DNA of 51,083 nt from Bryobacterales bacterium (GTDB lineage Bacteria > Acidobacteriota > Terriglobia > Bryobacterales > Bryobacteraceae): NCBI GenBank assembly GCA_019261985.1, contig JAFAQY010000005.1, positions 1-51,083 of the forward strand, given 5' to 3'. Position 1 is the stretch's first letter. Each line of letters starts with the position of its first letter. Positions 14,653 through 34,615 of this stretch are shown piece after piece. The notes under the pieces are model-generated. The model saw only the letters and a list, made by a program, of their open reading frames with translations. It ran no database searches and had not been told where the DNA came from. A program made the translations under genes and the position numbers.

Positions 14653-14780
14653 GTGGGGCAGGTTGCCAAACCTGGAGCGGGTTGCCAACCCGCTTGCCGA
14701 CCTTTATACCAACCCCGCCCAGCGCGGTGGCAACGCCCAGCGCGGTTGGCAACCGCGCGCCGGATGGCATCCGGCCCCAC
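14653..14780. repeat. Hairpin element copy B (full length)
   Basis: The element opens GTGGGGC and closes GCCCCAC. Inside are CAGGTTGCCAAACCTG, GCGGGTTGCCAACCCGC, a linker containing CCGACCTTTATACC and CCCCGCCCAGC, then GCGCGGTTGGCAACCGCGC and GCCGGATGGCATCCGGC. It carries an extra GCGCGGTGGCAACGCC-like unit before the third hairpin. It lies between the purE stop and the methyltransferase start. Confidence 0.9.
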
Positions 14781-14783
14781 AAC

Positions 14784-15269
14784 TCACAGTGTCTCGCTCA
14801 ACACCTTTTCCGCCTGCGCGGCCCGGAACGCCTTCAGCTTTTCGCTCAAGTCCCGGCGATGCGTCGCCAAAATCGCAATCGCAAGCAGCGCGGCATTCGT
14901 AGCTCCGGGTTTGCCGATACTGAGCGTCCCGACCGGAATGCCTCCCGGCATCTGCACAATCGACAGAAGCGAATCCATCCCGCGCAGCGCCTGGCTTTCC
15001 ATCGGCACTCCAAGCACCGGCAGAATTGTGTGGGCGGCCAGAACGCCGGCCAGGTGCGCCGCGCCGCCCGCGGCCGCGATGATCACCTCCAGCCCTCGGT
15101 CCCCGGCGGTCGAAGCCCATTCGGTCGCAGCCACCGGTGTCCGGTGCGCCGACAAAATCTTTCTTTCGTTCGGGACGCCGAACTGATCCAGAGTGTCGCA
15201 GCAATGGCGCATGGTCTCCCAGTCGGACTTGCTTCCCATCACCACGCCTACCAGCGGCTGCGAATCCAT
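14784..15269 (-). CDS. purE: N5-carboxyaminoimidazole ribonucleotide mutase
   Basis: This 161-residue PurE has [20 protein letters not shown] at the N-terminus, SAHRTP further in, and [20 protein letters not shown] forming the phosphate and substrate site. It moves the carboxyl group from N5-CAIR to C4 to give CAIR in purine biosynthesis, as a cytoplasmic homo-octamer. It starts 6 bases after the isocitrate dehydrogenase stop, so the two are cotranscribed. No purK is seen nearby. The stop lies 3 bases from hairpin element B. Confidence 0.95.
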
Positions 15270-15275
15270 GTTCGT

Positions 15276-16715
15276 CTATTGTCCCTGCGCGAGAGTGAAA
15301 CCCGGCTTGCCGTCATAATTGCGCAAGCTCTCGGTCAGCGCGATATCCAGGCCAAGGTCGGCAACGCGCCCGATCAGCGCCACAACTTCCTTCGGCGTGG
15401 TGCCGTTCTTGTCCACGAAGCGGCACCGGTAGGAATCGGTGCAGAACGTTTCCGGCGCGCCGTCCGGCCAAACCTTCGTCCCGCGATTCGACATCATCTC
15501 CAGAGCCAATCCGTTCGACCCGGCCTTGGCGACCAGTTTGGCCAATTCCGCCGTATTCTTCGAAGGCCATTCCACGTAAACATCCACGCCCACCAAATCG
15601 CGCTTCGGCGCCGGGCGCTTGGAAAGTGGAGGCAGAGGGCGTTGCGGCGCGGTCGAATACTCGACGGCTTTCAAAACCTGCGGCTTCTGTCCCAGGCGCG
15701 CGACTACCGCCTGCGCGAATTCCTTCGTCCCTACCTTCTGCTTGCTCTTCCCTTGTTCGTAAATATCGTAGGTGTGGATACCGTCTTCCATCGTGCGAAG
15801 CCAGCCGTTGTGGATGCGCTCGGCAATCTCGGGCAGCCCGATGTGTACCAGCATCAGCAGCGCTCCATGCAGCAGCCCCGAGGGATTTGCCATGTTCTGG
15901 CCCGCCCGCCGCGGAGCCGAGCCGTGAATGGCCTCGAACATCGCCGCTTGATCGCCGATATTGGAAGACCCGGCCAAGCCCACCGAACCCGCGATCTGCG
16001 CCGCCACGTCGGAAAGTACGTCGCCATACAGATTCGGCATGACGATCACGTCGAACGCCTCCGGCGTGTCCGCCATTTTCGCCGCCCCGATGTCGACGAT
16101 CCAGTGTTCCTTCTCGATTTCCGGATACTCGGCGCCGATCTCATCGAAGATCTTGTGGAACAGGCCGTCCGTCATCTTAAGGATGTTGTCCTTGGTGAAG
16201 CACGTGACCTTCTTGCGTTTGAACTTCAGCGCGTATTCGAAGGCGTAACGGACGATCTTCTCGCTACCCGGCCGGGAGATCAGCTTAATCGCTTGGATTT
16301 CGTCAGGGCTGGTTTGATACTCGATCCCCGCGTACAGATCTTCTTCGTTCTCGCGCACCACCACCAGATCCATCACCGGATGCTTGGTACGGACGAACGG
16401 ATGATAGGAGACGCAGGGCCGGATATTCGCGTAAAGCCCCAGCATTTTGCGTGTCGTGACGTTCAGGCTCTTGTATCCGCCGCCTTGCGGAGTGGTGATG
16501 GGCGCTTTGAGAAAAACCCTGGTGCGCCGCAGCGATTCCCAAGCGCTCGGGGCGATGCCGGAGGTGTTGCCGGAGAGGTAAACCTTTTCGCCGACTTCGA
16601 TAGTTTCGATATCAAGGGGCGCGCCTGCGGCTTCGAGGATCTCGAGCGTGGCCGCCATAATCTCAGGACCGATGCCGTCACCGTGCGCGACTGTAATAGG
16701 GATGCGTTTTGCCAT
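15276..16715 (-). CDS. icd: Isocitrate dehydrogenase, C-terminally extended type
   Basis: This 479-residue protein belongs to the isocitrate/isopropylmalate dehydrogenase family. IPITVAHGDGIGPEIMAATL opens the fold; RENEEDLYAGIEYQ holds the substrate-loop arginine and tyrosine, and NLYGDVLSDVAAQIAGSVGL the metal aspartates. About 140 residues beyond the usual core (after about 340) match the extended isocitrate dehydrogenases known from Thermus, normally NADP-linked. It catalyses oxidative decarboxylation of isocitrate to 2-oxoglutarate in the TCA cycle. Cofactor preference is inferred from the family. It is the first gene of an apparent icd-purE unit. Confidence 0.9.
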   Translation of the reverse strand: MAKRIPITVAHGDGIGPEIMAATLEILEAAGAPLDIETIEVGEKVYLSGNTSGIAPSAWESLRRTRVFLKAPITTPQGGGYKSLNVTTRKMLGLYANIRPCVSYHPFVRTKHPVMDLVVVRENEEDLYAGIEYQTSPDEIQAIKLISRPGSEKIVRYAFEYALKFKRKKVTCFTKDNILKMTDGLFHKIFDEIGAEYPEIEKEHWIVDIGAAKMADTPEAFDVIVMPNLYGDVLSDVAAQIAGSVGLAGSSNIGDQAAMFEAIHGSAPRRAGQNMANPSGLLHGALLMLVHIGLPEIAERIHNGWLRTMEDGIHTYDIYEQGKSKQKVGTKEFAQAVVARLGQKPQVLKAVEYSTAPQRPLPPLSKRPAPKRDLVGVDVYVEWPSKNTAELAKLVAKAGSNGLALEMMSNRGTKVWPDGAPETFCTDSYRCRFVDKNGTTPKEVVALIGRVADLGLDIALTESLRNYDGKPGFTLAQGQ

Positions 16716-16757
16716 TTTTTCGGGAGCGAGACGCTGAACAACTACAATAACATGCAG

Positions 16758-18023
16758 CTACGGAGTGCCAGAAGCAGCCGGCCTGCGGCTGCTGATTTTT
16801 ACGACTCGGCCAGCGCATTTCGCCTCTCGTCCTTGAATCTGACAAGTCACCAGGTTGTGCCTGCCACTGTCTTTATCGGGGCTGGTCAGACGCATTTCCC
16901 AGCCGGCGCCCTGGCGCGTGAAAAGCGTGTAGCCGAACGCTTGCCGGTTTTCGCTTTCCGCGACCACAACGCCGTGAATATCCATTCCGTTCACCTGTGC
17001 CGGGATGGGATCGGAAAGTTTCGTGCCGCCATCGCCCGCGACGATTTGCACCGGTCGGGTGCCCCCATAGCTCAAGACCTCGAACAAATGCGTATGACCG
17101 GAAAGCACCATATCGATACCCTGCGGCGCGGCTTTTTCCCAGGCTTGCTGGAGGGTCACGGTGTCTACGGCGGGCGGCTGATTCGGCACGCCCGCGCGCA
17201 CTCCCCAGAACGGATGATGATCCACCAGCCAGGCATTACGGGCATGCAGCGAAGCCAGTTGCGAAGAGTATGCAGCCGTTTGCTCACCGGCAGATTGATT
17301 GTCGTTGACCGCGGACGAATCGAAATTTATCGCCTGAAATTTTCCAAGCTCCACCGAATAGGGGCGCGAGATGTTTTCGCACATGCCGGTCCACGGCCTC
17401 GGGTCCAGGTAATAGAACCAGCCGCGCCAGGAGCGCTGGCAGTTCTCATGATTCCCGCGCACAAACATCCACGGGGCCGCCGCAAGCAGCTTCGCGGCAG
17501 GCTTGAAGAAATCCGCGTTCCAGGCCCCCCAATTGTCGCCGGAGGGACTGCCTCCGCAAACCCCTTGCTTATCCCGAGGGCAGGGGTCCTCGCGATAGAG
17601 ATAATCGCCGACATGAATCACCAGGTTGGGACGAACAGCCGCCGCGGCTCCAGCAACGGTTTGAAACGGCCACAGTGCTGGATCGTTGCAGTCCTGAAGC
17701 TGCACTCCTTTAATCCTGCAACCGGTGTCGCCAAACACAGCCACTCGCACGGGATCGGGATGAGGCAAAACCAGCGGCCTTCCGTTCACACTAGCCGTTT
17801 TCGTATTCGGAGGAATTTCCAGCTCACAGGCGGGACGAAAACCCGGAGGAACAGGTTCGCGCGGCAGCATCGGCCGCAACGCGTTCCCCACCCGGATGGA
17901 AGGACATTGGTCCGGAGTGGAAACCACCACCCGTGCGATGGCCCGCCCGCCTTCGCCAAGCTCGACCCAGACGGGCGTAAGAGTTTGACCCTGTGCGGCG
18001 ATCGTTGCCCAAAGCAACAGCAA
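16758..18023 (-). CDS. Secreted calcineurin-like metallophosphoesterase
   Basis: The metallophosphoesterase motifs are in order: VAVFGDTGC, VIHVGDYLY, FVRGNHENC, VDHHPFWG and SGHTHLFEV, supplying the two-metal site. A short hydrophobic segment LLLLWATIAAQGQ looks like the core of a signal peptide, so it is probably exported. The frame runs upstream to 18254, but that part translates hairpin element C and antisense of the rhodanese gene. I put the start near the TTG at 18023, which is uncertain because it leaves almost no basic n-region. The substrate is unknown; purple-acid-phosphatase-like proteins are the nearest likeness. Confidence 0.78.
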   Translation of the reverse strand: MLLLWATIAAQGQTLTPVWVELGEGGRAIARVVVSTPDQCPSIRVGNALRPMLPREPVPPGFRPACELEIPPNTKTASVNGRPLVLPHPDPVRVAVFGDTGCRIKGVQLQDCNDPALWPFQTVAGAAAAVRPNLVIHVGDYLYREDPCPRDKQGVCGGSPSGDNWGAWNADFFKPAAKLLAAAPWMFVRGNHENCQRSWRGWFYYLDPRPWTGMCENISRPYSVELGKFQAINFDSSAVNDNQSAGEQTAAYSSQLASLHARNAWLVDHHPFWGVRAGVPNQPPAVDTVTLQQAWEKAAPQGIDMVLSGHTHLFEVLSYGGTRPVQIVAGDGGTKLSDPIPAQVNGMDIHGVVVAESENRQAFGYTLFTRQGAGWEMRLTSPDKDSGRHNLVTCQIQGREAKCAGRVVKISSRRPAASGTP

Positions 18024-18038
18024 GCATGTCAGACCCGT

Positions 18039-18120
18039 GTGGGGGCGGATGCCATCCGGCGCGCGGTTGCCAACCGCGCTGTTCGGGGTTGGTCGCAACG
18101 CCCGCAAGCGGGTTTGGCGC
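18039..18120. repeat. Hairpin element copy C (partial)
   Basis: In reverse orientation relative to copy B it shows GTGGGGG, GCGGATGCCATCC, GCGCGGTTGCCAACCGCGC, then a degraded remainder with GGGGTTGGTCGCAACGCCC and GCGGGTTTGGCGC. It fills the gap between the rhodanese stop and the phosphoesterase start. Confidence 0.78.
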
Positions 18121-18127
18121 GCGGGCT

Positions 18128-18505
18128 TCACTTCTCGATCGGCAACCCCGCTGCATTCCACGCGCGCCATCCGCCATCCAGCGAAATCGCGTTCGCGTAC
18201 CCCATCTTCTGGAGCGCATCCGCGGCCAGCGCCGATCGGTATCCCCCGCCGCAATACAGCACCAGCGTTGTATTCTTATCCGGGATCGCGGATTCGATAT
18301 CGCGCTCGATCACGCCCTTGCCCAAGTGGACAGCTCCCGCGGCATGCCCGGCCGCGAACTCGTTATCCTCGCGGACATCGATCAGCACGTGACTATTAGC
18401 CGGCATGTTCTTGTACTGCTCGATATCGATTTGCTTGACCCGCGACTTCGCGTCGTTCACCAGGGTCAAAAATCCGGGACTGTGATGCTTGTGAGGAATG
18501 CTCAT
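18128..18505 (-). CDS. Rhodanese-like sulfurtransferase
   Basis: This 125-residue single-domain rhodanese has HVLIDVREDNEFAAGHAAGA (the CH2A-type motif) and the active-site loop LVLYCGGGYRSALAADAL with the catalytic cysteine; the family end GGWRAWNAAGLP is also present. It should carry persulfide sulfur in the cytoplasm. The particular acceptor is unknown. It is followed on the same strand by hairpin element C and the phosphoesterase, possibly as one transcript. Length is normal for the family. Confidence 0.92.
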   Translation of the reverse strand: MSIPHKHHSPGFLTLVNDAKSRVKQIDIEQYKNMPANSHVLIDVREDNEFAAGHAAGAVHLGKGVIERDIESAIPDKNTTLVLYCGGGYRSALAADALQKMGYANAISLDGGWRAWNAAGLPIEK

Positions 18506-18734
18506 TTCGCCGTCTCGATTTTCTCATAATCGCTACGGGTGGCTTCCCCCAGTGTGCAGCCTAAAATCGTGCATACTCAAGTGAAACGAAGATCTGAACG
18601 GCGTCGCTGGTTTGTCCTGCAAGTCCAGTCGCCAGTGCGCAGCCGGAAATCGTCATTGATGAACGAGTGCAGGCCATTCCAGCTCGCCTGCGGAGGGGCT
18701 TTGGTGAGCTGCTGAAGTGGGCGGAATAGCGAAA

Positions 18735-20351
18735 TCAGCGGCTGCTCATTTGCAGTCCCGTGAACTGATACTCGTATTTCCATGCATGGCGAGCTCCGAG
18801 CATGAGTCCATCGGCGCCGAAGGTCATGAGCGCCGCGGGTGTTTGGGTAACGTCGATCTCAGCCGACGCGGGGCAGTCAACAAGAAAATCGTTCAGCGCG
18901 AAGCCGGGCGGCGTGAACGTGTACGTGCCGGCAGATCCTGACAAAATCGCCTCCATGTACATCTCAAATCCGCCGGCGAAGGTTCGGACCTTCACGTCCA
19001 CGGCACTTTGATCGTCACCGCCGGTCCAACTAACGGTTAGCGGCTTGTTGCAGGAAAGCGTGGTACCGGGCGGGAACTGCGAAGTCACCTGGATCGGGCC
19101 TGGGATAGCCACGGTGGAACTGAAGGGGCCTACATCTTTTCCTCCGACGGTGGACAACGTGTGTGGCCCGGCGCCTACCGTGCCCGAGGGGAGGGAAACC
19201 GAGATTTCGCCGCCCGGGCCAAGGGGCGTTGAGATTGTGGCTTGGCCGGTCACCCAAGCCATGATCGTCCCGGCATCGAGCGGAGCGGGGAGCAGGTTGC
19301 GGCAATCGGGTCCAGGATTCTGAACGAAGCCGTTCAATAGCGGTCCCCAGGGCGGCTTTGGCGGAAGCGCGGGGAAGTAGTTGCCCTCGGCCTGGCTCAT
19401 CCGAGCATAGAACTGTTCGGAAGGAGGCCCGGTATTGGAGTAGGTTTTGCGCCATTCGAAAACGGCAAGCGAGATGGGGTGCGGAACGCATGCTCCGCGT
19501 CCCATGTGGTGCTTAACGGGACCGGTTGGCTAGTCTTCCGAATAGCAGCAGCCGGAGCGGAACCTGGCAACCCTCCGCGACCCCATCAGGGATCCGGAAA
19601 TTTGCCTGGTCGATACCGACCGTTCCTGGCGCGTGGCCCCAGTACTGGCTGCTGGCGTAAGCACCACCGGTGCTTCCTATCGTGAACGATCCACCCGGCC
19701 ACGCGGCGGCATTGAATCCTTTCTGCGGCGTGTAACCCGCTGGCTGGCCGTCTGGGGGCATGATCCCTCCGCCATGGCCCACAAGTCCAAACCCGGTAAA
19801 ATAGACCGAAATCCAATCGCCCGGCTGAACGCTGGCGCTGGGCCCATGGACCTGCACGCCTCCGTCGGGGAGCGAGTTGAGCAGCGCTCCCTGCCCGCAG
19901 CCTGATCCGTCCAGGGTCAATATGCCGGGGCCTTGCTGCGCAACATATACGGCTACAGGATCGCTCGTTCCCACGGGCATCGTGACGACCACGTGTGTTG
20001 GAAAGTCGTATATTCCGCCATAGCTATATATGCTCGTCGGTACTTGAAAGTTGATCTGGTTTGGCGACACGTAAAATAGCGGGGCCGATATTGCGCCACC
20101 GTAGTCAGTAAACGTCACTTGAACACCGCCCATCTGAAAGGGGAGTGGAAACCCCGATGCCCGTTGCGTTACCGGCGATAGATTCTGCCCGAATATCGAC
20201 GCGATAGACCCGGGGCCGAGCCAGCTCCCTGGCCCGACGCAGCAGCGAAGCTGGCGCCATTAACAATACCACCCGGATTGATCACAGGCTTCTGGGCGCA
20301 GAGATCCGCTGCCGCACAGCAGAAAAGAGCAACAAATGCCCGGAGCGTCAT
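18735..20351 (-). pseudogene. Secreted TIGR03437-type protein, broken by frameshifts
   Basis: The 5' piece (20351 down to about 20215) starts MTLRAFVALFCCAAADLCAQ, a signal peptide, then PGGIVNGASFAAASGQG, the usual opening of acidobacterial TIGR03437 proteins. The match then moves to the neighbouring frame (LGPGSIASIFGQNLSPVTQ), which continues GAISAPLFYVSPNQINFQVP to a stop at 19513. A second break is needed near 19520 to pass into the last 250 residues (19505-18735), which contain FEWRKTYSNTGPPSEQFYAR and two beta-rich parts. Either the gene is decaying or the assembly carries indels here. The TIGR03437 domain is typical of secreted or surface proteins of Solibacter-like bacteria; its role is unknown. 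Confidence 0.7.
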
Positions 20352-20593
20352 TGTCCCTGCCTCAGCCCGGTGACGGTAAAGACTCGGCTAACCGCAGCCC
20401 CCATGGGTAGGGTCTGCCGGAGCCCTGAGCGCTTATTCCCGTTCCAAGTTCAATCCTGAAAGGATGTGTATTTGGCTAGACAGAAATTTTAACCGTCGCT
20501 AGTCGAGGTAGTCAATGAAAAAATACGGTAATGACGCAGACAAATGCCTAGGATTTTTCCGATAATGCGTGACGGTTTGGCTGGAGGGCGGCC
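20352..20593. other. Gene-free spacer upstream of the broken TIGR03437 gene
   Basis: About 240 bases between the murA stop and the TIGR03437 start hold no credible reading frame. On the minus strand, 20350-20430 contains several self-complementary GC-rich words (such as CCGGCAG and CTGCGG) and could fold as a structured leader, but I do not recognise a known riboswitch. The part at about 20460-20560 is AT-rich and may hold the promoter. Confidence 0.3.
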
Positions 20594-21868
20594 CTATTTC
20601 GCCGACACCCTTCGAATGCGGGCGCCCGCGCCGGCGAGTTTCGTCTCGATTTTCTCATAGCCGCGGTCGATGTGATAGACGCGGTCGATTACTGCTTCGC
20701 CTTTCGCCGCCAGACCGGCGAGGACTAGCGAGGCGCTGGCGCGAAGGTCACTCGCGATCACCTGGGCGCCGGAAAGCGGCGTGGGTCCGGCGACGATTGC
20801 CTGCCGTCCTTCCAGCCGGATGTTCGCGCCCATGCGCGCCAGTTCCAAGGCGTGCATGAAGCGGTTCTCGAAAATGGTTTCGGTGATGAAGGAAATCCCT
20901 CCCGCTTGCGTCATCAGCGCCATGAACTGCGCCTGCAGATCCGTCGCGAAGCCGGGGTGTTCTTCGGTCGTGACATCCACGCTCTTCAAAGGATTCGGCG
21001 TCCGCACACGCAGAGTGTCCGCCGCCTCCGTCACTTCGGCTCCCGCCTGACGAAGCTTCGCGATCAAGGCTCGAAGGTGCTCGGGCACGCAGCCGGTCAC
21101 GGCCAGATCGCCGCGAGTCAGCGCTCCGCCGATCAGAAACGTCCCGGCCTCGATGCGATCGGCAATCACCGTGTGCGACGCGCCGTGCAGCGTCGCCACG
21201 CCCTGGATGTGAATTACCGGCGTCCCCGCGCCTTCAATTTGCGCGCCCATCGAAGTGAGCAGCCCGGCGACATCCACCACCTCCGGCTCGCGCGCCGCGT
21301 TGCGGATCACGGTTTCGCCTCGCGCCAACACGGCGGCCATCATTATGTCTTCGGTCCCGGTGACGGTGATGCGGTCGAAGATGATATCGGCTCCGCGCAG
21401 GCCTTCCGGCGCCTCGGCCTCAATATAGCCGTGCTGCTGGCGAATTCTTGCGCCGAGCTGCTCCAGCCCGGAAGTGTGCAGATTGATCGGCCGCGCGCCG
21501 ATGGCGCACCCGCCCGGCAGCGACACGCGCGCGCGCCCAAATCGCGCGACCAGCGGCCCCAGAACCAGGCTCGAAGCGCGCATGGTTTTTACGAGATCGT
21601 AGGGAGCCTCGGGCTCGCGGATTTCGGCCGCGCGAATGGTTATGCGGCTTTTTTTCCCCGCCGCCTTTTCCACACAGATCTCCGCGCCGATGTGCTTCAC
21701 CAGGTTGAGCATGGTCTGGATGTCGCGCACGGCGGGCACGCGGTCGAGCGACACTTGCTCGGAGGTCAGAAGGCACGCGGCCAAGGCCGGCAGAGAAGCG
21801 TTTTTCGAGCCACTGACGGCAATCGAGCCTTCGAGCGGGGTTCCACCTTGAATTATGAATCGATCCAA
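20594..21868 (-). CDS. murA: UDP-N-acetylglucosamine 1-carboxyvinyltransferase
   Basis: This 424-residue MurA has the N-terminal [15 protein letters not shown] with the active lysine K22 and the loop [14 protein letters not shown] with the fosfomycin-target cysteine C121. The C-terminal half includes [19 protein letters not shown]. It transfers enolpyruvate from PEP to UDP-GlcNAc, the first committed step of peptidoglycan synthesis, in the cytoplasm. The start is a TTG immediately after the murQ TAA with no spacing, so translation is probably coupled to murQ. A cysteine rather than an aspartate at the loop predicts fosfomycin sensitivity of the enzyme. Confidence 0.95.
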
Positions 21869-22801: not shown

Positions 22802-22843
22802 TCAGCCGCGTATGATCGAGGTGAACTTTTTTCGAACTTCAAT

Positions 22844-22885
22844 GTAGGCGGGCTGAAGCCCGCCGCAGGCTTAAGCCTGCCCCAC
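22844..22885. repeat. Hairpin element copy D (two-hairpin form)
   Basis: GGCGGGCTGAAGCCCGCC (22847-22864) and GCAGGCTTAAGCCTGC are perfect palindromes, followed by the closing GCCCCAC. This is the short version of the family, using the GGCT/AGCC arm. It sits between the erpA stop and the murQ start. Confidence 0.85.
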
Positions 22886-22912
22886 ACAGCGGGCAAGTTT
22901 TGCGACCAGGTA

Positions 22913-23236
22913 TTAGACGCTAAAGGAACTGCCGCACCCGCAGGTGGACTTAACGTTCGGATTATTGAATTTAAAACCCGAACCTTCCATCGTTTCAACA
23001 TAGTCCACTTCGGCGCCGTCCAGGTACAGCATGCTCGCCTGGTCGATGAAGATCTTCAGATCGCCGAAATTATATGTCTTATCGAGGAAGCCGGGACTGT
23101 TCTCGAAAGCCATGGAATAGCTGAAACCCGAGCATCCGCCCCCGACAACGGAGATTCTGAGGCCGGCCGGCTTAGGCTCCTGGGTCGCCAGGATTTCATT
23201 CACTTTTCCGACCGCAACATCCGTCAATTGAACCAT
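22913..23236 (-). CDS. erpA: ErpA/IscA-type iron-sulfur cluster insertion protein
   Basis: This 107-residue A-type carrier ends in the pattern STCGCGSSFSV and has GGGCSGFSYSM upstream, giving the three cysteines that hold the cluster. It passes Fe-S clusters to apo-enzymes in the cytoplasm. Whether it is ErpA, IscA or SufA in function cannot be told; no isc or suf genes are in the window. It is divergent from the sigma factor gene and upstream of murQ on the same strand. Confidence 0.9.
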   Translation of the reverse strand: MVQLTDVAVGKVNEILATQEPKPAGLRISVVGGGCSGFSYSMAFENSPGFLDKTYNFGDLKIFIDQASMLYLDGAEVDYVETMEGSGFKFNNPNVKSTCGCGSSFSV

Positions 23237-23263
23237 AAGGGGTATTCCGACTCCTTCTTAGAA

Positions 23264-25328: not shown

Positions 25329-25419
25329 ATGCCGCGCAGGCAGGTAGCGCGCGGCCAACGGATCGATTAATCGCATCCGGAAACACGACCCCGCAAGACA
25401 AATGTACGATTGAATCAGG

Positions 25420-27419
<2,000 letters not shown>

Positions 27420-27423
<4 letters not shown>

Positions 27424-28196
27424 AGCTCCAGGGAATGGGGCTGGTTTGCACCGGAAGCGTGACCCAGTCCTTCTTGGCCCGGATGCCCGCGCTGCTCGCG
27501 CGTCTCGGCCCGGTGAAGGCATCTTCTTTCCGAGTCGGGCGCCAAATCTCGCGTTCGCTTCGCGCGGGGCAATCGGCGTCGCATTTCTCGGCGTTGGAAA
27601 CATGCCCGGTGGTATGGTTTGCGATGCCGGAAACCATGCTCGAGCGCGCACTGAGTGAATTCGCAACGCAGACGCCAATTCATAAAACAATGGTGGTGTT
27701 GTGCGATTGCGAGCGCCAAAGCAGCCGGCCGGGGATGCTATCCCGCACAGGCGCGCGCGTTGCGTCGCTGAATGCGGTGCCCGAATTCAACGAGCGGCTA
27801 TTCATCGCCGAAGGACATCCGGATACCCTGCGCGCGATTCGCCGGCTGACGGAATTGGAAGACCGCAAGCTCATCGAACTCCAATCCGGCATGAAGCCGC
27901 TGTTCTTCGCCGGAACGCGATTCGCCGCCCCGTTGCTGCTGCCCTGGATCGCGGCGGCGGTCGAGAGTCTGCGGCTGGCGGGCTTCACGCGCGCGGAGGC
28001 CGCTGCTGTCGGAGAGAATATCGGTATTCGGACGCTGTACAGATATACCAAAGCCGGACCGAGGGCGTGGAACCGCAAGACAGCCGCCAGCCTACGGCAC
28101 GGGCTGGAGCACGATCTGGAAACGATTCGCGGCCGCGACCGCCGGCTGTCGGAAATCTACGAGCAAGGGATCCGCATCGCGCTGGCGAAGTTTTGA
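27420..28196 (+). CDS. Rossmann-like/DUF2520 oxidoreductase-type protein
   Basis: This 258-residue protein has an N-terminal beta-alpha segment ([20 protein letters not shown]) in the place of a nucleotide-binding fold, [12 protein letters not shown], and a helical C-terminal half ([20 protein letters not shown]). The layout resembles ProC-like proteins with a DUF2520 C-terminus. The usual GxGxxG is replaced by [10 protein letters not shown], so dinucleotide binding is doubtful. Its ATG overlaps the uvrB stop, so the two are made together, though no functional link to repair is known to me. Confidence 0.6.
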
Positions 28197-28198
28197 GA

Positions 28199-28392
28199 TG
28201 GGGCCGGATGCCATCCGGCGCGCGGTTGCCAACCGCGCTGGGCGGGGCTGGTGGAAGGGTCGGGAGGTTGGCAATGGCAACCCGCTGCAGGTTGCGGCTT
28301 TCGCAATCTACGCGCACTCCGCGCTGGGTGGGGTTTGTGGAAAGATCAAGAAGCGGGTTGGCAACCCGCTGCAGGTTGGCAACCTGCCCCAC
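28199..28392. repeat. Hairpin element copy E (double length)
   Basis: The left part reads GCCGGATGCCATCCGGC and GCGCGGTTGCCAACCGCGC, followed by a linker that is the complement of the copy B linker. The right part ends GCGGGTTGGCAACCCGC, CAGGTTGGCAACCTG, GCCCCAC. The middle holds a second linker copy, so two elements in the same orientation appear to have joined. It fills the space between two convergent genes, ending 5 bases from the NamZ-fusion stop. Confidence 0.88.
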
Positions 28393-28396
28393 TGGG

Positions 28397-30739
28397 TCAG
28401 TACTTCAAGAACGGCTTGCGCCGCGACATGAACGTTGCTCGATCAGCGGTCATCGATTTTTCTATAACGACGGGATCGGCTCCGCTCTTCATCAGCTCAA
28501 TCGTGCGCCGATTTCCGATGGAGAGCTTGCATTTTTCGAGATCGAGCTTCCCGGGGTAGAGCTTGTTCAGCGCGAACGCAAGCTCAAGGCCGAGGCGGAT
28601 GCTGTTCAAGGCTTCGCGATCGGCAATCGCGAAGCGGACACCCTCAACAGCTTTGCCTTTGAGAGCAGAATCTGTTGGCGTAAACCGAATCGCCGCGAAC
28701 CGAATGCCCGGAATCGGGCGCGCGTTTAGAAAACGGGCCAACTCGTCGCCCCGAATCCATTCCGCGCCGATCTGCTCGAAGGGCGTATCTGTGCCTCGGC
28801 CGACTGAAAGGTTCGGCGCCGACTCGAGCATCGCCACGCCAGGGTAGAGAATGGCGGCGTCGATGCTGCGAAGATTCGGCGACGGATTTACCCAGGTCAG
28901 TCCAGTCGAGTCGAACCAATCCCCGCGGGACCAATTTTTCATCGTCACCACCCGCAGATTCGCGCCGATCTTGTTTTCGGCGTTCGCCATTGCCGCCAGC
29001 TCGCCCAGAGTGAGGCCGTGGCGGACCGGCAGGCTATAGCAGCCTATGCCGCTTTCCAAATCCTTGTCGAGCATTGGTCCCTCTACGCGCAGACCAGTGA
29101 TGGGATTCGGCCGGTCAAGCACGTAGAAGGCGATTTTCGCCGTCGCCGCCCGCTCCATGGCGGCGAGCATGGTGCACCCGTAGGTGTAAAACCGCGCGCC
29201 CGCATCTTGCATATCGAAGATAAGCGCGTCCATTCCGCGCAGCATCTCGGGAGTCATGCGGAAACGGCTGTTTTGATACAGGCTCCAAACCGGCAGACCA
29301 GTCGATTCGTCTCTCGAATCCGCCACATTCGGTTGATCCAGCTTGCCGTTGATGCCGTGCTCGGGCGAGTACAGCGCGGCCACATCGATCCCGGCTTGGC
29401 GCATCAGGTCGACATTCCGGCGGCCGGCGCGGTCCAGGCCGGTTTGATTGGTGATTAACCCGACGCGCTTTCCTTTGAAAGGCGCAAACTGCTGCTGCTC
29501 CAGAACGTCAAGACCCGTCTGAGTCTCGCGGTAGACAGCCGCGGCCACGATAGTCCCGATCCCGCGCCGCAGGGGCGCGATGCTTTTCCCGCTGTTCGGA
29601 TGTACCGCATTGGTCAGCAGAATTACATACGTGTTTGAGCCCGGATCGACCCACAGCGACGTTCCCGTGAATCCGGAGTGCCCATAGGAGCCGCGCGGAA
29701 AATCCCCGCGGGGCGCCGAGTACGGAGAATCGATGTCCCACCCCAGGCTGCGGATGGCCGATTGACCGGGCGGCGACGCGGGCGCCGTAAATCTGTCGAC
29801 GGTTTCCGGCGAGAAGATCGGCTTGCCCTTATCGAGCATCATTTGCGCATAGCGGGCCAGGTCGGCCGCCGTGCTGAACACACCCGCGTGGCCCGCGACT
29901 CCCCCCATGTAGCGGGCCGTGGGGTCGTGCACCACGCCGCGGAGCGGCTGGCCGGTGGCCGCATCGATCTCGGTCGGCGCGACACGCGCTCGCAGTGAAG
30001 CGGCAGGCCGGAATGTAGTCTCGGTCATTCCAAGCGGCGTAAAAATCTGCTCGCGCGCGAATTCATCCAGAGGCTTGCCGCTGAGGCGCCGTACGATTTC
30101 GCCAAGCAGCTCGAAATTGATATCGCTGTAGACGAAGCGCCGGCCCGGAGGGTTCGCGGGCTTCTCAAGCAGGGCCTTCGCTATACCGGTGTCATAGCCG
30201 CTCCACGGCGGTTGCAGATCGAGGTCGGCGCGCAATCCCGAGAAATGGGTCATCAGGTCGCGAACGGTAATGTTTTTGCCGCCCTGAAATTCGGGAAGAT
30301 ACGCAGTGACAGGATCGTCAGGGCGGATCTTAGCCTGCTCATAGAGCTTCATGATCGCCGGGGTGGTCGCGACCACTTTTGTAAGCGATGCGATATCGAA
30401 AATGGTGTCGAGCGTCATCGGCTCGCGCGCGGGGGTCAGCGCACGGTTGCCGTACGCTTTCCAATATACGATGTTGCCATCGTGGCCAACGACGAGAACC
30501 GCGCCGGGAATCAATCCATCGCGGATGGCCTGATCGATGCGCGCATCGAGCGCGGAGGATGCCGAAAAGGTGGCTTCAGCGGATACGGACTGGGCGAGCC
30601 CGAGCAGCGTAAGCCCGAGCAGTGGAAGTAAGGCAAGCGGTTTCGAAATCGCGCACAGGCGGGTTGGCAACCCGCCGCAGGCTGGCAGCCTGCCCCACGG
30701 GACGCGTGCAAAGGACCACAGGCCTGTTTTTGCTGCCAT
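28397..30739 (-). CDS. Beta-lactamase-family serine hydrolase fused to NamZ-type exo-beta-N-acetylmuramidase
   Basis: The N-terminal half (about 60-385) is a class C-like serine hydrolase with SLTK (IASLTKVVAT), YSD (FVYSDINFELL) and GHSGFTGTS. The C-terminal half (about 395-780) is the DUF1343/NamZ domain: RVGLITNQTGLDRAGRR, YSPEHGINGKLD and FDMQDAGARFYTYGC. NamZ removes MurNAc from the non-reducing ends of peptidoglycan fragments. A hydrophobic segment LALLPLLGLTLLGLAQSVSA predicts export. The start is uncertain: the ATG at 30739 lies 9 bases after the mutS-like stop but its N-terminus translates hairpin element F; an in-frame TTG at 30670 gives a more normal signal peptide. Confidence 0.9.
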   Translation of the reverse strand: MAAKTGLWSFARVPWGRLPACGGLPTRLCAISKPLALLPLLGLTLLGLAQSVSAEATFSASSALDARIDQAIRDGLIPGAVLVVGHDGNIVYWKAYGNRALTPAREPMTLDTIFDIASLTKVVATTPAIMKLYEQAKIRPDDPVTAYLPEFQGGKNITVRDLMTHFSGLRADLDLQPPWSGYDTGIAKALLEKPANPPGRRFVYSDINFELLGEIVRRLSGKPLDEFAREQIFTPLGMTETTFRPAASLRARVAPTEIDAATGQPLRGVVHDPTARYMGGVAGHAGVFSTAADLARYAQMMLDKGKPIFSPETVDRFTAPASPPGQSAIRSLGWDIDSPYSAPRGDFPRGSYGHSGFTGTSLWVDPGSNTYVILLTNAVHPNSGKSIAPLRRGIGTIVAAAVYRETQTGLDVLEQQQFAPFKGKRVGLITNQTGLDRAGRRNVDLMRQAGIDVAALYSPEHGINGKLDQPNVADSRDESTGLPVWSLYQNSRFRMTPEMLRGMDALIFDMQDAGARFYTYGCTMLAAMERAATAKIAFYVLDRPNPITGLRVEGPMLDKDLESGIGCYSLPVRHGLTLGELAAMANAENKIGANLRVVTMKNWSRGDWFDSTGLTWVNPSPNLRSIDAAILYPGVAMLESAPNLSVGRGTDTPFEQIGAEWIRGDELARFLNARPIPGIRFAAIRFTPTDSALKGKAVEGVRFAIADREALNSIRLGLELAFALNKLYPGKLDLEKCKLSIGNRRTIELMKSGADPVVIEKSMTADRATFMSRRKPFLKY
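30658..30698. repeat. Hairpin element copy F (two-hairpin form)
   Basis: GGCGGGTTGGCAACCCGCC (30658-30676) and GCAGGCTGGCAGCCTGC (30677-30693) are perfect palindromes, closed by GCCCCAC. It lies in the 5' end of the NamZ-fusion reading frame, before the signal peptide. Confidence 0.85.
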
Positions 30740-30748
30740 CGGAAAGAG

Positions 30749-32542
30749 TTAAGCTTGTCCTACGTCCAATCCTACCGCGCGCATTAGCGCGAGAGCATTG
30801 CTGCGCGTCACGACTCCGGCGCGCAGGCGGTAATCGAACCGGATTTCGCCGCCTTCGAGATAATCTTCGAAATGGACGTTCGCAGCGCGGCCGTCGAGGC
30901 TCGCTACGATATCGGCGAGGGCTAGATCGTGCGTCGTAACCATCCCGATGGCCCCGTGCTCGACCAAGCCGCGGATCAATGCCTCGGCGCCGATGCGGCG
31001 ATCGTGTGAATTGGTTCCACTGAGCAATTCGTCAAGCAGGAACAGCGTTGGACGTCCGCTGCGCGCGAGGTCCATTACATCGCGAAGCCTGCTAATTTCG
31101 GCATAGAACCTAGACCGATGATCGATTACGGAGTCGTTCGCGCGCATGCTGGCGCCGATGTTCAGCCGCGAAACACGCAAGCGAGCAGCTGCAACCGGCG
31201 CGCCCGCCCATGCCAAAACGGTGTTCAGGCCAACGGCTCGAAGCAGCGTGCTCTTACCCGACATATTGGATCCGCTCACGATCCACAGCCGGGTTCGATC
31301 GCCGAGCGAGACGTCATTGGCGACTGCTTCTTCCGGTGCAATCAAGGGATGGACCAACCCGGCTGCATCGAAGAGCGGCTCTGAGGATTCCAGCAATTCG
31401 GGAAATACGGTTTGGGGCCGCTCATACGCGAATGCCGCAAGCGAGCAGAGAGCTTCGAACTCACCGACCGCGGCCATCCACCGGCCGACATGCGGACCGC
31501 ACTGCTCCCGCCACGCTTCTACAGCCATCGCGAATTGAGAGGTCCACAACAGCGGTGCGGCAATGGGCGCGAAGAACTGATTTCGCGCCGAGTATAGATG
31601 ATGGACGAGCCTTCGCAAATGGTGGATCTTCCGCGAGGCTACATGCCCCTCGACAGCGATCGACGCCCGCAGCGCCGCCAAACCCGGCGACTTGAACGCT
31701 TCGCGCTCCAGACGCTCTAATAAACTCCCGAGCAATTCCAACTCTTGCGCCGGCGTGCTTGCGGACGCAACGACCTTAATCGCGGATTGGCGCACCCAAA
31801 AGCCGAAAATGACTTCCAGCAGAACTGCAGCCAGGAACCAGCGCAAGCTGAGAGCTTGCGCCAGGAATAGAGCCAGACCTGCGACGGCAGCCGCCGCAAG
31901 AACAAGCGCAACGATGCGCGCACCCGGGAAAAACGCGACGGGGGGCTGCTCGCCCCAGCTCTTAAGCGCCCGGTCGTCCACGGCTGCGCGAACCTCTTCG
32001 CCCATAAGCGCGAGGTCCTCGCGCAGATCGATGCGGTCGCGCAGCTCCGCCACGGCTTGCTGCCGTGCAATCGCGTCTTCCCGCTCGCCTGGCGCGAGCA
32101 GCCATTCGGCGAGGATGCGTTCGCCGGCCGACGTGCGCGCGGTCGAAAGAAGCTCGAACAGCGAGCCGCGGCCGAACAGGTCGAGATCGTCGGCATAGCA
32201 ATGCTTAGGGTCGCGGAACCGCTCGCCTTGCGAACCGTCGCCTATCCAACGATTCTCGATCCGCGCCAGCGCCCGCTCATAATACGCGGCCGCGCGCGAG
32301 GCCTTTTTGAGCGAATCGTCCACGCGCCCGTGCGCCACCGCCATGGGGATAAAAGCGACGACCGGCGCGAGCAGCCACCACGGCGAGATCCATCCGCCAC
32401 CGAGTGAAGCGGCGGCGATCGCCACAGCCGCAACGCCCACCAACAGGCGCGCGTTGCCGAGCTGACGATAGCGCCGGTCCCAGTGCCGGCGGGCATCGCG
32501 CCAGTGAGCAAGGCGGGATTGATACTCCTGTCGCGGATTCAC
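30749..32542 (-). CDS. Membrane-associated MutS-like ATPase
   Basis: This 597-residue protein keeps only the ATPase part of MutS: Walker A GSNMSGKST at 424-432, Walker B LFLLDELLSGTN near 500, and the following TTHDLALADIVASL. Hydrophobic pairs at about 30-70 (LLVGVAAVAIAAASLGGGW, LLAPVVAFIPMAVA) and about 210-250 predict four membrane helices, absent from true mismatch-repair MutS. The mismatch-binding domain I (with FxE) is also lacking, so a role in mismatch recognition is unlikely; such membrane MutS homologues have no agreed function. The GTG start overlaps the preceding phosphoesterase stop as GTGA. Confidence 0.82.
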   Translation of the reverse strand: MNPRQEYQSRLAHWRDARRHWDRRYRQLGNARLLVGVAAVAIAAASLGGGWISPWWLLAPVVAFIPMAVAHGRVDDSLKKASRAAAYYERALARIENRWIGDGSQGERFRDPKHCYADDLDLFGRGSLFELLSTARTSAGERILAEWLLAPGEREDAIARQQAVAELRDRIDLREDLALMGEEVRAAVDDRALKSWGEQPPVAFFPGARIVALVLAAAAVAGLALFLAQALSLRWFLAAVLLEVIFGFWVRQSAIKVVASASTPAQELELLGSLLERLEREAFKSPGLAALRASIAVEGHVASRKIHHLRRLVHHLYSARNQFFAPIAAPLLWTSQFAMAVEAWREQCGPHVGRWMAAVGEFEALCSLAAFAYERPQTVFPELLESSEPLFDAAGLVHPLIAPEEAVANDVSLGDRTRLWIVSGSNMSGKSTLLRAVGLNTVLAWAGAPVAAARLRVSRLNIGASMRANDSVIDHRSRFYAEISRLRDVMDLARSGRPTLFLLDELLSGTNSHDRRIGAEALIRGLVEHGAIGMVTTHDLALADIVASLDGRAANVHFEDYLEGGEIRFDYRLRAGVVTRSNALALMRAVGLDVGQA

Positions 32543-33291
32543 CCTGACTGCACACGAAATGCCGAGAACGCTTCGAGCATAGCTGCCTCCGAGGGCGGCC
32601 GCAAAACGTAGCGCTCGGCGAATTCCGCCGCCTCCGGATAACCGGTTAGCCGAATGCGCGCAGCCGCGGCATCGAGATCGTAATTCGTGTGGCGGAGCTG
32701 AATGTCCGGCCCCAGCAGCAGCCAGTCGCCGCCTGGCTGCCCAAACGGCATTCCCACGCTTCCGGCGTTTACAACGCGAGTTCGCCCGATCATGCGATCA
32801 AATTGCATATGGGTATGCCCGCACACGACGACGCTCTCACTGACTGCTTCAAAGGCCGGCAACAGCCGCTCTTCGGGTGTCACTTTGGTGAAGATGTCGT
32901 CTGGGTTTTGAGGCGTAGCGTGGCAGAACAATACAGATCCCAAACCGGGTATATCGAGCGTCAGTGTCATGGGCCAGGAGGTTAACGCTTGTTCTTCCCG
33001 CGGTCGAAGCTGCTGCGCGGTCCATCGGATGGGAAGCCGGTACTGCTCCGGAACCTTAACCGGATCCTTCCCCGCTAGCTGCTGAAGCACGGCCACCTCG
33101 CCATTGCCTCGAATGAACTGCATAGGAATATCGAGATCGAGCAGGCTCCCCAATGATTCGCGCGGCATGGGTCCGGGGAGGACGTCACCGCCGACCACAA
33201 CACAGTCCACGTTTGTTTCGCGAATATCCGTGAGCACCGCCTCCAGCGCGGGAAGATTCGCGTGGATATCGTATATTGCGGCGACCCTTAT
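32539..33291 (-). CDS. YfcE/MJ0936-like metallophosphoesterase with apparent ATA start
   Basis: The full protein should begin RVAAIYDIHANLPALEAVLT, where DxH (YDIH) is the first metal motif. Later motifs are VVVGGDVL, IRGNGE (in place of GNHE), VVCGHTHMQFDR and NAGSVGMPFG. The codon in front of RVAA is ATA (33291-33289), with GGAGGT 5 bases upstream at correct spacing. The nearest in-frame GTG (33237) would delete the DxH motif, and the ATG at 33304 is out of frame. So either ATA is the start or an ATG has mutated. Its stop overlaps the MutS-like gene, making this the operon head. The fold suggests a phosphodiesterase or phosphatase; the substrate is unknown. Confidence 0.8.
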   Translation of the reverse strand: MRVAAIYDIHANLPALEAVLTDIRETNVDCVVVGGDVLPGPMPRESLGSLLDLDIPMQFIRGNGEVAVLQQLAGKDPVKVPEQYRLPIRWTAQQLRPREEQALTSWPMTLTLDIPGLGSVLFCHATPQNPDDIFTKVTPEERLLPAFEAVSESVVVCGHTHMQFDRMIGRTRVVNAGSVGMPFGQPGGDWLLLGPDIQLRHTNYDLDAAAARIRLTGYPEAAEFAERYVLRPPSEAAMLEAFSAFRVQSG

Positions 33292-33305
33292 AAATGACCT
33301 CCATG

Positions 33306-33414
33306 GTGGGGCAGGATGTCATCCTGCGGCGGGTTGCCAACCCGTCTGCCGACCTTTTGGCCTACCCCGAACAGCGCGATTGGCAATCGCGCGCAGGTTG
33401 GCAACCTGCCCCAC
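33306..33414. repeat. Hairpin element copy G (full length)
   Basis: Between GTGGGGC and GCCCCAC lie CAGGATGTCATCCTG, GCGGGTTGCCAACCCG, a linker with GCCGACCTTTT and ACCCCGAACAGC, GCGCGATTGGCAATCGCGC and CAGGTTGGCAACCTG. It differs from copies B and H by paired changes in the arms. It begins 3 bases from the Shine-Dalgarno sequence of the ATA-start phosphoesterase. Confidence 0.92.
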
Positions 33415-33454
33415 ATATTCGACCCTGCGCAGACCACAAAACCAGTAGTTTGCT

Positions 33455-34489
33455 CTACCCTTTACGCGCGGACATCGCCTTCGCGCTCGGCTGCTGATGT
33501 CCTAAAATCGCGTGCGGCCGGTACGGTTTTTCTAGCGCCGCCACTTCGTCGGCCGATAACTTCAGATCTACGGCTCCGATCAGATCCTTCAGGTGCTCGG
33601 CCTTGGTCGCGCCGACAATCGGCGCGGTTACACCCGGCGCCTGCAGCACCCACGCGCACGCGACTTGCGCCGATGAAACGCCGCGACGCGCGGCAACTTC
33701 CGCCACCGCATCGGCGACTTTAAAATCGTCCTCCGAGTAGTACATGTCCTTCGCGAACGTGTCTACCTGCGACCGCGTGGTGGACCCACCTTCGCGTTTT
33801 CGGGTTCCGGTCAGAAATCCGCGCGCCAGCGGACTCCACGGGATCACCGCCAAGCCCTGGTCCACGCACAACGGAATGGTTTCGCGCTCCTCCTCGCGGT
33901 ACACCAGGTTGTAATGATTCTGCATGGAAACGAAGCGATGCCAGCCATGCTCCTTGGCTGTGTACAGAGCCTTCGAAAGCTCCCAGGCCGCCATGCTGCT
34001 CGCCCCCACGTAGCGAACCTTCCCGGCGCGAACCAGCGAATCGAGCGCGTCGAGCGTTTCCTCGATTGGCGTTTTCGGGTCCCAGCGATGGATCTGATAA
34101 AGGTCGATAAAATCCATGCCCAGGCGCCGCAGCGAATTATCGCAGCCCTCAATGATGTGCTTGCGGCTGAGTCCGCGCCGGTTCGGCCCCAGTCCCATAA
34201 CGCCGTGAACTTTGGTGGCCAGCACGATGTCGTCCCGGTCCGCCATCTCGCGCAGCAGCGACCCCACGATCTCTTCGCTTTGCCCCGCCGAATACACGTC
34301 GGCAGTGTCGAAGAAATTAATGCCGGATTCGAGCGCCATCGCGAAATGCCCCCGCGCTTCGTCCTTGCCTACGTGCCACCCGCGAGTGCCGGTCGCCCAC
34401 GCAGGATAATCGCCGCTTCCATAGCTCATGCAGCCCAAACAAATTCTCGAAACCGTGATTCCGGTGTTGCCAAGAGATGTGAATTGCAT
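33455..34489 (-). CDS. Aldo/keto reductase
   Basis: This 344-residue protein starts MQFTSLGNTGITVSRICLGC and has the catalytic set of the superfamily: D and Y in FFDTADVYSAGQSEE, K in IVLATKVHG, H in LYQIHRWDPKTPIEETLDAL. The NADPH-binding end is IPWSPLARGFLTG and PIVGATKAEHLKDLIGAVDL. It reduces aldehydes or ketones with NADPH in the cytoplasm; the substrate is not evident. GGGAG sits 7 bases before the ATG. Hairpin elements flank the gene on both sides (H upstream, G downstream). Confidence 0.93.
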   Translation of the reverse strand: MQFTSLGNTGITVSRICLGCMSYGSGDYPAWATGTRGWHVGKDEARGHFAMALESGINFFDTADVYSAGQSEEIVGSLLREMADRDDIVLATKVHGVMGLGPNRRGLSRKHIIEGCDNSLRRLGMDFIDLYQIHRWDPKTPIEETLDALDSLVRAGKVRYVGASSMAAWELSKALYTAKEHGWHRFVSMQNHYNLVYREEERETIPLCVDQGLAVIPWSPLARGFLTGTRKREGGSTTRSQVDTFAKDMYYSEDDFKVADAVAEVAARRGVSSAQVACAWVLQAPGVTAPIVGATKAEHLKDLIGAVDLKLSADEVAALEKPYRPHAILGHQQPSAKAMSARKG

Positions 34490-34506
34490 CCTTGAACTCC
34501 CTTGAA

Positions 34507-34615
34507 GTGGGGCAGGTTGCCAACCTGCAGCGGGTTGCTAAGCCGCTTCCCGACCTTTTGAGAAACACCGCCCAGCGCGGTTGGCAACCGCGCGCCGGAT
34601 GGCATCCGGCCCCAC
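34507..34615. repeat. Hairpin element copy H (full length)
   Basis: Same order as copy B: GTGGGGC, CAGGTTGCCAACCTG, GCGGGTTGCTAAGCCGC (one imperfect pair), linker CCCGACCTTTTGAG and CACCGCCCAGC, GCGCGGTTGGCAACCGCGC, GCCGGATGGCATCCGGC, GCCCCAC. It lies between the DUF1810 stop and the aldo/keto reductase ribosome site. Confidence 0.92.

What the first reader, a model, noticed from the sequence alone, without database searches (positions are those of the whole stretch)
14653..34615. A family of modular, covarying hairpin elements scattered through the locus
Nine copies are visible (2087, 14653, 18039, 22844, 28199, 30658, 33306, 34507, 36666). The full form is GTGGGGC - hairpin 1 - hairpin 2 - about 30-base linker (CCGACCTTTT ... 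CCCCGCCCAGC) - hairpin 3 - hairpin 4 - GCCCCAC. Each hairpin is a perfect or near-perfect palindrome with a TGCCA/TGGCA or TCA/GAA centre, and the arms change in step between copies: GGTT/AACC, GGAT/ATCC, GGCT/AGCC. Short copies contain exactly two hairpins. Paired changes imply selection for folding in DNA or RNA rather than mere copying. I do not know this family; REP/BIME elements and MITEs are the nearest known concepts.
Basis: partly seen in the sequence, partly recalled or inferred. Interest (0 to 1): 0.78.

Follow-up and report, generated by a model that had tools for sequence, protein, structure and literature searches.

The report
Double-hairpin mobile repeats with cognate transposase
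These are many short hairpin repeats, apparently spread around a soil bacterium's genome by a small single-strand DNA transposase; they belong to a known kind of repeat (REP elements) but carry two hairpins at each end instead of one.

Summary
The copies belong to a large genome-wide repeat population: one outer-hairpin pattern matches 358 times in the own genome, 0 in its control. The unit is GTGGG + 7-bp hairpin + 8-bp hairpin, with strongly covarying stems. The genome has four uninterrupted REP-associated tyrosine transposase (RAYT/TnpAREP) genes; three lie between inverted copies of these units, where a full element has its linker. Across related genomes, 56 of 73 such genes carry a double-hairpin unit on at least one side, against about 1 of 146 flanks in the control. 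Unit sequence follows the transposase tree, and copy number tends to follow the cognate transposase. Three features differ from textbook REPs: two hairpins behind one GT[AG]G foot; both hairpins of a unit share their apex but not their base; and in gene-less elements the two inner hairpins never had identical stems (0 of 51, against 13 of 34 around transposase genes). Mobility was not shown: no empty site was found.

The parts
2087..2128 (+). two-hairpin unit, class B1 (GTGGA foot, TTCA apices, spacer between hairpins); same class as the ends of RAYT L011
   Evidence: lies next to the start of the ORF 305-2077 on the minus strand
14653..14780 (.). full four-hairpin element, class A (left unit 14653+, right unit 14780-), with a partial internal duplication seen by eye
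18039..18079 (+). two-hairpin unit, class A, right-end type (GCGCG inner hairpin)
22847..22885 (-). two-hairpin unit, class B2 (GTGGG foot, TTAA/TTCA apices)
28198..28392 (.). inverted class A full form with apparent decayed units inside; fills the gap between the stop codons of two convergent ORFs (28196 and 28397); left foot reads ATGGGG
30658..30698 (-). two-hairpin unit, class A, left-end type
33306..33414 (.). full four-hairpin element, class A, 109 bp
34507..34615 (.). full four-hairpin element, class A, 109 bp
36668..36692 (.). single-hairpin remnant with GTGGGG...CCCCAC at its two feet

Best explanation
The repeats are non-autonomous REP-type elements of a double-hairpin variant. A RAYT/TnpAREP transposase (HUH, one tyrosine) reads the GT[AG]G foot and the folded hairpins on single-stranded DNA at each end, cuts and rejoins that strand, and so spreads copies into intergenic DNA. 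An autonomous copy is end - RAYT gene - inverted end; the full form is the same pair of ends with a short linker (4-45 bases in 51 elements, 27 in the two intact window copies) in place of the gene. Two-hairpin copies are single ends or decayed full forms. Shown here: architecture, covariation, linkage to the gene, matching of ends and gene across genomes, co-occurrence, shared apices within a unit, unlike inner hairpins in gene-less elements. Inferred: mobility, action on single-stranded DNA, two transposase subunits per end reading the two like apices, and that unlike inner hairpins stop the two ends from collapsing into one long palindrome across the short linker.
For: Own genome: 5 Y1_Tnp (PF01797) matches, 4 without a stop inside the match. 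L010 lies between GTGGGGCAGGTTGCCAACCTGC-hairpin 2 and its inverted copy; L011 and L012 lie between class B1 and B2 units (the downstream unit of L012 has a mismatch and is missed by the detector, but is listed); L009 has single-hairpin GTAG repeats. Against NCBIfam REP_Tyr_transpos (cut-off 80), L009 scores 88.3 and L010, L012, L011 score 79.6, 76.2, 68.5. L010 matches PDB 4ER8, TnpAREP, by sequence (E 3.9e-6), and its AlphaFold model (mean pLDDT 84.2) finds 4ER8 first (E 3.5e-8). Relatives: 73 distinct RAYT loci, 34 with a double-hairpin unit on both sides, 22 on one, 17 on none; reversed control about 1 of 146 flanks. A gene's two ends resemble each other (0.76) far more than other genes' ends (0.19). 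Protein and unit distances correlate (Mantel r 0.60, n 56, p 0.0005); unit types follow the tree. Copy number: class A is 9-358 in the 11 of 41 genomes where a clade-A RAYT was fetched, and 5 or more in 3 of the other 30 (controls 0 throughout). Apices: hairpin 1 and 2 of one unit match 0.63 against 0.39 shuffled, bases do not; same with 21 RAYTs under 60% identity, p 0.0005. Inner stems identical (innermost 7 bases) in 0 of 51 gene-less elements, 13 of 34 RAYT loci, Fisher p 1.3e-6.
Against: No empty site was found, so movement is not demonstrated. 17 of 73 RAYT loci show no double-hairpin unit with my detector, and the label needs 13 changes on the tree, so it was gained or lost several times or is missed in decayed ends. 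Some genomes hold many copies of a class without a fetched cognate gene (GTGGC class: G063 93, G004 35, G200 19, G017 11; GGACC class: G004 75, G063 52, G205 25, G176 21), although not all their RAYTs were fetched; for the GGACC class the 5-or-more comparison is not significant (p 0.08), and at low counts the gene's own ends are among the copies. DNA folding of all 51 full forms puts base pairs across the two halves; both outer hairpins are local in only 2 of 51 and both inner ones in 36 of 51, so four free hairpins are not the predicted ground state. The own genome's commonest class A inner hairpins (29 GCGCGRTT and 17 RGCGG-type of 52) are not those of its resident RAYT (GGCCGATT/GGCCGGTT). 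With RAYTs thinned to under 50% identity only 3 are left and the apex test is not significant (p 0.17).
Confidence: 0.86

Rival explanations
1. The repeats are kept because the host uses them, for example as RNA hairpins that stop transcription or protect mRNA ends, or as protein-binding sites; the paired changes come from that use and the transposase link is historical.
For: They avoid long open frames (32 of 98 units inside stop-to-stop frames of 300 codons or more, which cover 71.5% of the sampled sequence); 28198-28392 fills a convergent gap between two stop codons. REPs elsewhere are said to have such roles (abstract openings of PMC3733652 and PMC2817692).
Against: Classes with separate transposases in one genome, stems that follow the transposase tree, and absence of the class A pattern from 14 of the 19 same-genus relatives searched, with 1-28 matches in the other five, fit a mobile element better.
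Confidence: 0.1
2. Ordinary MITEs moved by a DDE transposase.
For: Inverted terminal repeats, non-coding, high copy number.
Against: No direct repeat of 2-9 bases flanks any of 12 strict full forms in the sampled own genome; ends are hairpins with compensatory changes; the gene lying between such ends is a Y1 HUH transposase.
Confidence: 0.02
3. The rule that inner hairpins of gene-less elements differ is not functional: perfect long inverted repeats with a short gap are deleted by the cell or lost in short-read assemblies, so only unlike pairs are seen.
For: A hypothetical element with two like ends would pair 41-55 bases across the halves; long perfect palindromes are known to be unstable (recalled). 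The data are draft genomes, and 21 of the 51 elements come from one genome.
Against: Outer stems are identical (innermost 6 bases) in 25 of 51 gene-less elements, so partly like ends survive; in G113 all 21 elements pair a CGGC type with a CGAG type (20) or a CGAA variant of it (1), where 11.2 mixed pairs are expected at random, as if these were fixed left and right ends.
Confidence: 0.35

Closest known systems
REP elements with RAYT/TnpAREP (REPtrons)
   Same: GT[AG]G foot, hairpin, intergenic high-copy repeats, cognate HUH-Y1 transposase gene between inverted copies, each gene with its own repeat class (PMC2817692 passages; PMC6006769 sections 12-13).
   Different: Two contiguous hairpins behind one foot instead of one; the second hairpin has no foot of its own; both hairpins share the apex but not the base.
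REPINs (inverted REP doublets, PMC3116915 passages)
   Same: The full form is an inverted doublet with a short linker; the outer parts of the two halves can pair across.
   Different: REPIN halves are described as pairing into one long hairpin; here the inner hairpins of the two halves were never identical (0 of 51), and both stay local in the predicted fold of 36 of 51.
[not shown]
   Different: E. coli units are single hairpins with a bulge; here units are double hairpins with mostly perfect stems.
TIRtrons/TIRYT genes (PMC3733652, section 16)
   Same: Tyrosine transposase genes between inverted repeats; an Acidobacteria group; the legend of Figure 9 mentions 'double palindromic TIRs', and two Pseudomonas TIRs are degenerate GTAG units adjoined to unrelated stem-loops.
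   Different: Apart from those Pseudomonas cases the TIRs of Figure 8A are called unrelated to REPs; the figures themselves could not be read here, so whether the Acidobacteria cases are the same element is open.
IS200/IS605 ends (IS608, ISDra2)
   Same: Same fold of transposase, hairpin ends with a 5' guide, unlike left and right ends (the last two from PMC8266576 and recall).
   Different: Y motif is Y..NP, not Y...Q; one hairpin per end (recalled).

Membership tests
REP/RAYT (REPtron) | High-copy, extragenic, palindromic repeat | tested here: met
   358 outer-hairpin pattern matches, control 0; depleted in long frames; covarying stems
REP/RAYT (REPtron) | GTAG or GTGG tetranucleotide at the foot of the hairpin | tested here: met
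   GTGG in 72 and GTAG in 18 of 90 RAYT-flanking units (the filter itself asked for GT). In the window each of the nine places has GTGG at one end at least (the left foot at 28198 reads ATGG)
REP/RAYT (REPtron) | Cognate RAYT gene between inverted copies of the same repeat | tested here: met
   L010, L011, L012; 34 of 73 loci both sides, 22 one side, 17 none
REP/RAYT (REPtron) | HUH motif, Y..NP motif, guide-contact residues | tested here: met
   H109, H111, W147, Q148, R157, Y168, N172, P173 invariant in 15 of 15; D153 in 13 and H154 in 12 of 15 (last two counted by eye); PDB 4ER8. The E. coli contact residues W94, Q95, E100, H101, R104 are from PMC6006769
REP/RAYT (REPtron) | One hairpin per REP unit | tested here: not met
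   Two contiguous hairpins; of 90 units 84 have a first stem of 7 or 8 bp, and 77 a second stem of 8-10 bp
REP/RAYT (REPtron) | Cognate transposase binds and cuts the repeat as single-stranded DNA | not testable with these tools
   needs protein
REPIN | Inverted doublet that pairs along its length into one long hairpin | tested here: not met
   Inner stems identical in 0 of 51; the outer parts do pair across in the predicted fold of all 51, and in 8 of 51 no hairpin at all stays local, so single copies can come close to it
MITE of a DDE transposase | Target-site duplication | tested here: not met
   0 of 12 full forms for 2-9 bases
TIRtron (PMC3733652) | Tyrosine transposase gene between terminal inverted repeats; some with motif GGGGWSAS | tested here: inconclusive
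   Inverted repeats present; the motif does not fit GTGGGGCAGG by eye; figures and supplements were not read
IS200/IS605 | TnpA with Y...Q motif | tested here: not met
   Y..NP in 15 of 15; NF033573 IS200 model below its cut-off for all four own proteins

The most novel reading that the evidence does not exclude
In this lineage of Acidobacteriota the REP/RAYT system has turned into a four-hairpin element with fixed, unlike left and right ends: at each end two transposase subunits read two hairpins with the same apex, the bases are free to drift, and unlike inner hairpins are needed so that the short, gene-less copy keeps two hairpins exposed instead of folding into one palindrome. I know of no description of such transposon ends for REP, REPIN or IS200/IS605 elements, and seven searches of the open-access library listed none.
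Probability: 0.35. Interest if true: 0.7.

Novelty: new variant of a known kind. Interest (0 to 1): 0.55.

Why it matters
How REP sequences spread, and how a transposase that processes one hairpin copies a doublet, are open questions. Here are hundreds of natural ends, dozens of them beside their own transposase gene, with covarying stems and a split between a shared part (apex, foot) and a free part (base). That gives direct predictions for binding stoichiometry and for why doublets have the shape they do. It also accounts for repeats that fill intergenic DNA in a group of soil bacteria.

Tried and rejected
Rfam: no family beyond a tRNA. DDE-type MITE: no target duplications. Empty sites: orthologous regions in relatives were found, but the same-genus matches listed are 65-79% identical, too far to align intergenic gaps base by base; I did not pursue it. 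The loci of the strongest PF01797 hits (L084-L112) gave 2 detector hits against 1 in the control, and were set aside as other groups; four of them, with L116, served as outgroup. A first class-B scan has a noisy control (55 hits, 9 in the reversed sequence); I rest no count on it. Di Nocera's figures and supplements could not be read. The fold prediction went against my first idea of four free hairpins, so that idea was narrowed to the inner ones.

Rows dropped: of 85 RAYT loci handed to, 5 gave no open frame and 7 repeated another's core, leaving 73. Of 12 strict full forms, L023:5097 (215 nt, several units) was left out, and window 34507 (missed by the strict detector) was added by hand. Of 20 stretches one (L222, a RAYT locus) was left out of these. 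The full forms of other genomes were picked by me from the capped listings, as neighbours in opposite orientation. Of 80 loci, 14 gave no open frame. Own-genome sampling used mostly contigs known to hold GGTTGGCAACC, so densities there are biased upward. Strict 'solo' counts (74 of 98) are too high, because many solos still carry linker sequence.

Papers. Seen: PMC3733652 (section 16, passages), PMC6006769 (outline with abstract, sections 12, 13, 15 part 1, passages), PMC8266576 (outline with abstract, section 20, section 23 part 1, passages), PMC3116915, PMC2817692, PMC3174227 and PMC12306157 (passages). Searches for prior description: (seven, of an open-access library; listings capped at 15-30 papers); no title or abstract opening listed describes double-hairpin REP units in this group, but subscription journals, supplements and figures are not covered.
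Full report
What is there. The nine places exist as described. Three are full forms (14653, 33306, 34507), four are two-hairpin units (2087, 18039, 22844, 30658), one is an inverted full form with apparent decayed units inside (28198-28392), and one has a single hairpin (36668-36692). The window is contig 122 of a 6.49-Mb draft genome. A pattern for the outer hairpin of the main class matches 183+175 times in that genome, with 0 in the reversed control. The 23 best named relatives of the transposases are all from Acidobacteriota records, many labelled Bryobacterales or Bryobacteraceae (titles), so the host is probably of that group.

Architecture and covariation. The main class (A) reads GTGGG, a 7-bp hairpin with a 3-base loop, then at once an 8-bp hairpin with a 3-base loop. 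Found by foot and loops alone, 54 units (38 distinct) occur in 824,827 bases, and none in the reversed sequence. Of the stem cells not used for finding them, 413 of 456 are Watson-Crick pairs, against a mean of 300 and a maximum of 321 in 500 shuffles. The pair-counting tool agrees on three of its five measures: 98.5% of cells paired against 80.2, 72 cells changed on both sides against 28, covariation score 0.447 against 0.134, and 0.018-0.060 when slid. A general detector finds 98 units, control 0. There are at least three classes in this genome: A (loop GCC and relatives), B1 (GTGGA foot, TTCA apex, spacer of 1-2 bases) and B2 (GTGGG foot, TTCA-like apex, no spacer).

The transposase. Five PF01797 matches lie in the genome. 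L010 sits between class A ends, L011 between B1 ends, L012 between B2 ends, each where a full element has its linker. L009 has single-hairpin GTAG ends, and that repeat too is dispersed (GTAGGACAAGCTT 24 times in the sample, reversed 0). The fifth match has a stop inside. Against the NCBIfam model for REP-associated tyrosine transposases, L009 passes the cut-off and the other three fall below it (79.6, 76.2, 68.5 against 80). L010's only solved relative by sequence at E 0.001, and its best by fold, is TnpAREP, 4ER8, solved with a REP hairpin. The HUH histidines, W, Q, R and Y..NP are invariant in 15 aligned proteins.

Relatives. A profile of these proteins finds members in 83 of 200 genomes of the order at E 1e-20. 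Of 73 distinct loci read, 34 have a double-hairpin unit on both sides, 22 on one and 17 on none; reversed flanks give about 1 of 146. Stems differ between clades, yet each gene's two ends are alike (0.76 against 0.19; the own partner is the best of 34 in 22), and unit distance follows protein distance (Mantel r 0.60, p 0.0005). On the maximum-likelihood tree the GCAGGTT/GGCCGATT type (clade A), the GGACC type and the GTGGC type each go largely with a clade. The label double-hairpin needs 13 changes, so it is clustered (0 of 500 shuffles as low) but not one clean gain. In 41 genomes class A pattern matches number 9-358 where a clade-A gene was fetched (11 genomes) and 0-30 elsewhere (30 genomes; Mann-Whitney p 3e-7). 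The GTGGC and GGACC classes go the same way (p 2e-5 and 2e-4) but with high counts in several genomes without a fetched cognate gene. Among 66 readable loci of the named collection, double-hairpin ends that look real appear in 11, all from Acidobacteriota records by title. Two further detector hits (L291, L316) look like single hairpins with a chance neighbour. Single GT[AG]G hairpins on both sides appear in 8 loci of other phyla and 5 of Acidobacteriota; no chance control was run for that scan. Some of these 80 loci match earlier ones in sequence.

Two regularities. First, the apex (loop and two pairs) of hairpin 1 matches that of hairpin 2 in the same unit (0.63 against 0.39 shuffled), while the four basal bases do not (0.40 against 0.43). 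With only 21 proteins under 60% identity the result stands (p 0.0005), with 12 under 55% too (p 0.001), with 3 under 50% not (p 0.17). In the own genome 78 of 80 classifiable units have like apices (18 of 98 unclassified). Second, in 51 full forms without a gene, from eight genomes, the inner stems (innermost 7 bases) are never identical, whereas 13 of 34 pairs around RAYT genes are (Fisher p 1.3e-6). Outer stems show no such difference (median identity 0.875 against 1.0, p 0.56). In genome G113 all 21 full forms pair one CGGC-type inner hairpin with one CGAG-type (20) or a CGAA variant (1); 11.2 mixed pairs are expected at random (p 1e-4). In the own genome 6 of 6 strict class A full forms pair a left type with a right type. 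The elements thus seem to have distinct left and right ends. Caution: 21 of 51 are from one genome, 12 from the own and 11 from a third, and the assemblies are drafts.

How it most likely works. By analogy with E. coli, Stenotrophomonas and Marinomonas TnpAREP (PMC8266576, parts read), the enzyme uses the GT[AG]G foot and the hairpin, in some systems its loop, on single-stranded DNA. Shared apices suggest that the same protein reads both hairpins of an end. This is inference; no binding was tested. Predicted folds: with the short linker, a hypothetical element with two like ends pairs 41-55 bases across its halves; the real ones pair 5-51. In 36 of 51 real elements both inner hairpins stay local while, in 34 of these 36, neither outer one does: the outer parts pair with each other into a terminal stem from which two inner hairpins project. 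In 8 of 51 no hairpin stays local, among them window 14653. So unlike inner hairpins keep two hairpins exposed in most copies, not in all.

Comparison with what is known. The genes, the foot, the inverted arrangement and the gene-repeat pairing are those of REP/RAYT systems (PMC2817692, PMC6006769). The one-hairpin unit of REPs and the end-to-end hairpin of REPINs (PMC3116915) are not met. E. coli BIMEs are a precedent for pairing unlike REPs. Di Nocera and colleagues (PMC3733652) already noted tyrosine transposase genes of Acidobacteria with inverted repeats, some TIRs 'double palindromic', and double structures in Pseudomonas; their figures were not readable. Hence the verdict: a new variant of a known kind, with two regularities that seven searches of the open-access library did not turn up.

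Noticed in passing
window 1-123 and 305-2077: Two copies of a 40-base repeat 72 bases apart beside an ORF with Cas1 and Cas4 domains (Pfam 5e-89 and 2e-14): probably the edge of a CRISPR-Cas locus with a Cas4-Cas1 fusion; a related motif lies at 9875.
   Followed up: no
window 42584-48013 and 48176-50833: Two long neighbouring ORFs share stretches of 89-96% identity, perhaps a tandem duplication.
   Followed up: no
for example L207, L208, L216, L230-L232, L236-L238 (genomes G113 and G165): Many GTGGC-class full forms sit, by eye, inside a further inverted repeat of about 35 bases (CCTGTCAGGAAATAACCATGCC...CGAC on both sides), as if part of, or inserted into, a larger palindromic element.
   Followed up: partly
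L009 (own genome C119): A co-resident RAYT with single-hairpin GTAGGACAAGCTTCAGCTTGTCC repeats; the same genome thus holds single- and double-hairpin systems side by side.
   Followed up: partly
own-genome units, positions before the foot: The base before the foot differs by class: G in 23 of 24 class B1 units, T or A in 50 of 66 units that the script labelled class A (that label is loose), perhaps a trace of target choice.
   Followed up: no
L128 (genome G022): A RAYT lacking roughly 25-30 residues of an N-terminal stretch that the other 14 aligned proteins share has single hairpins with GTAG at its flanks; one case only, but it may hint at what that stretch does.
   Followed up: no
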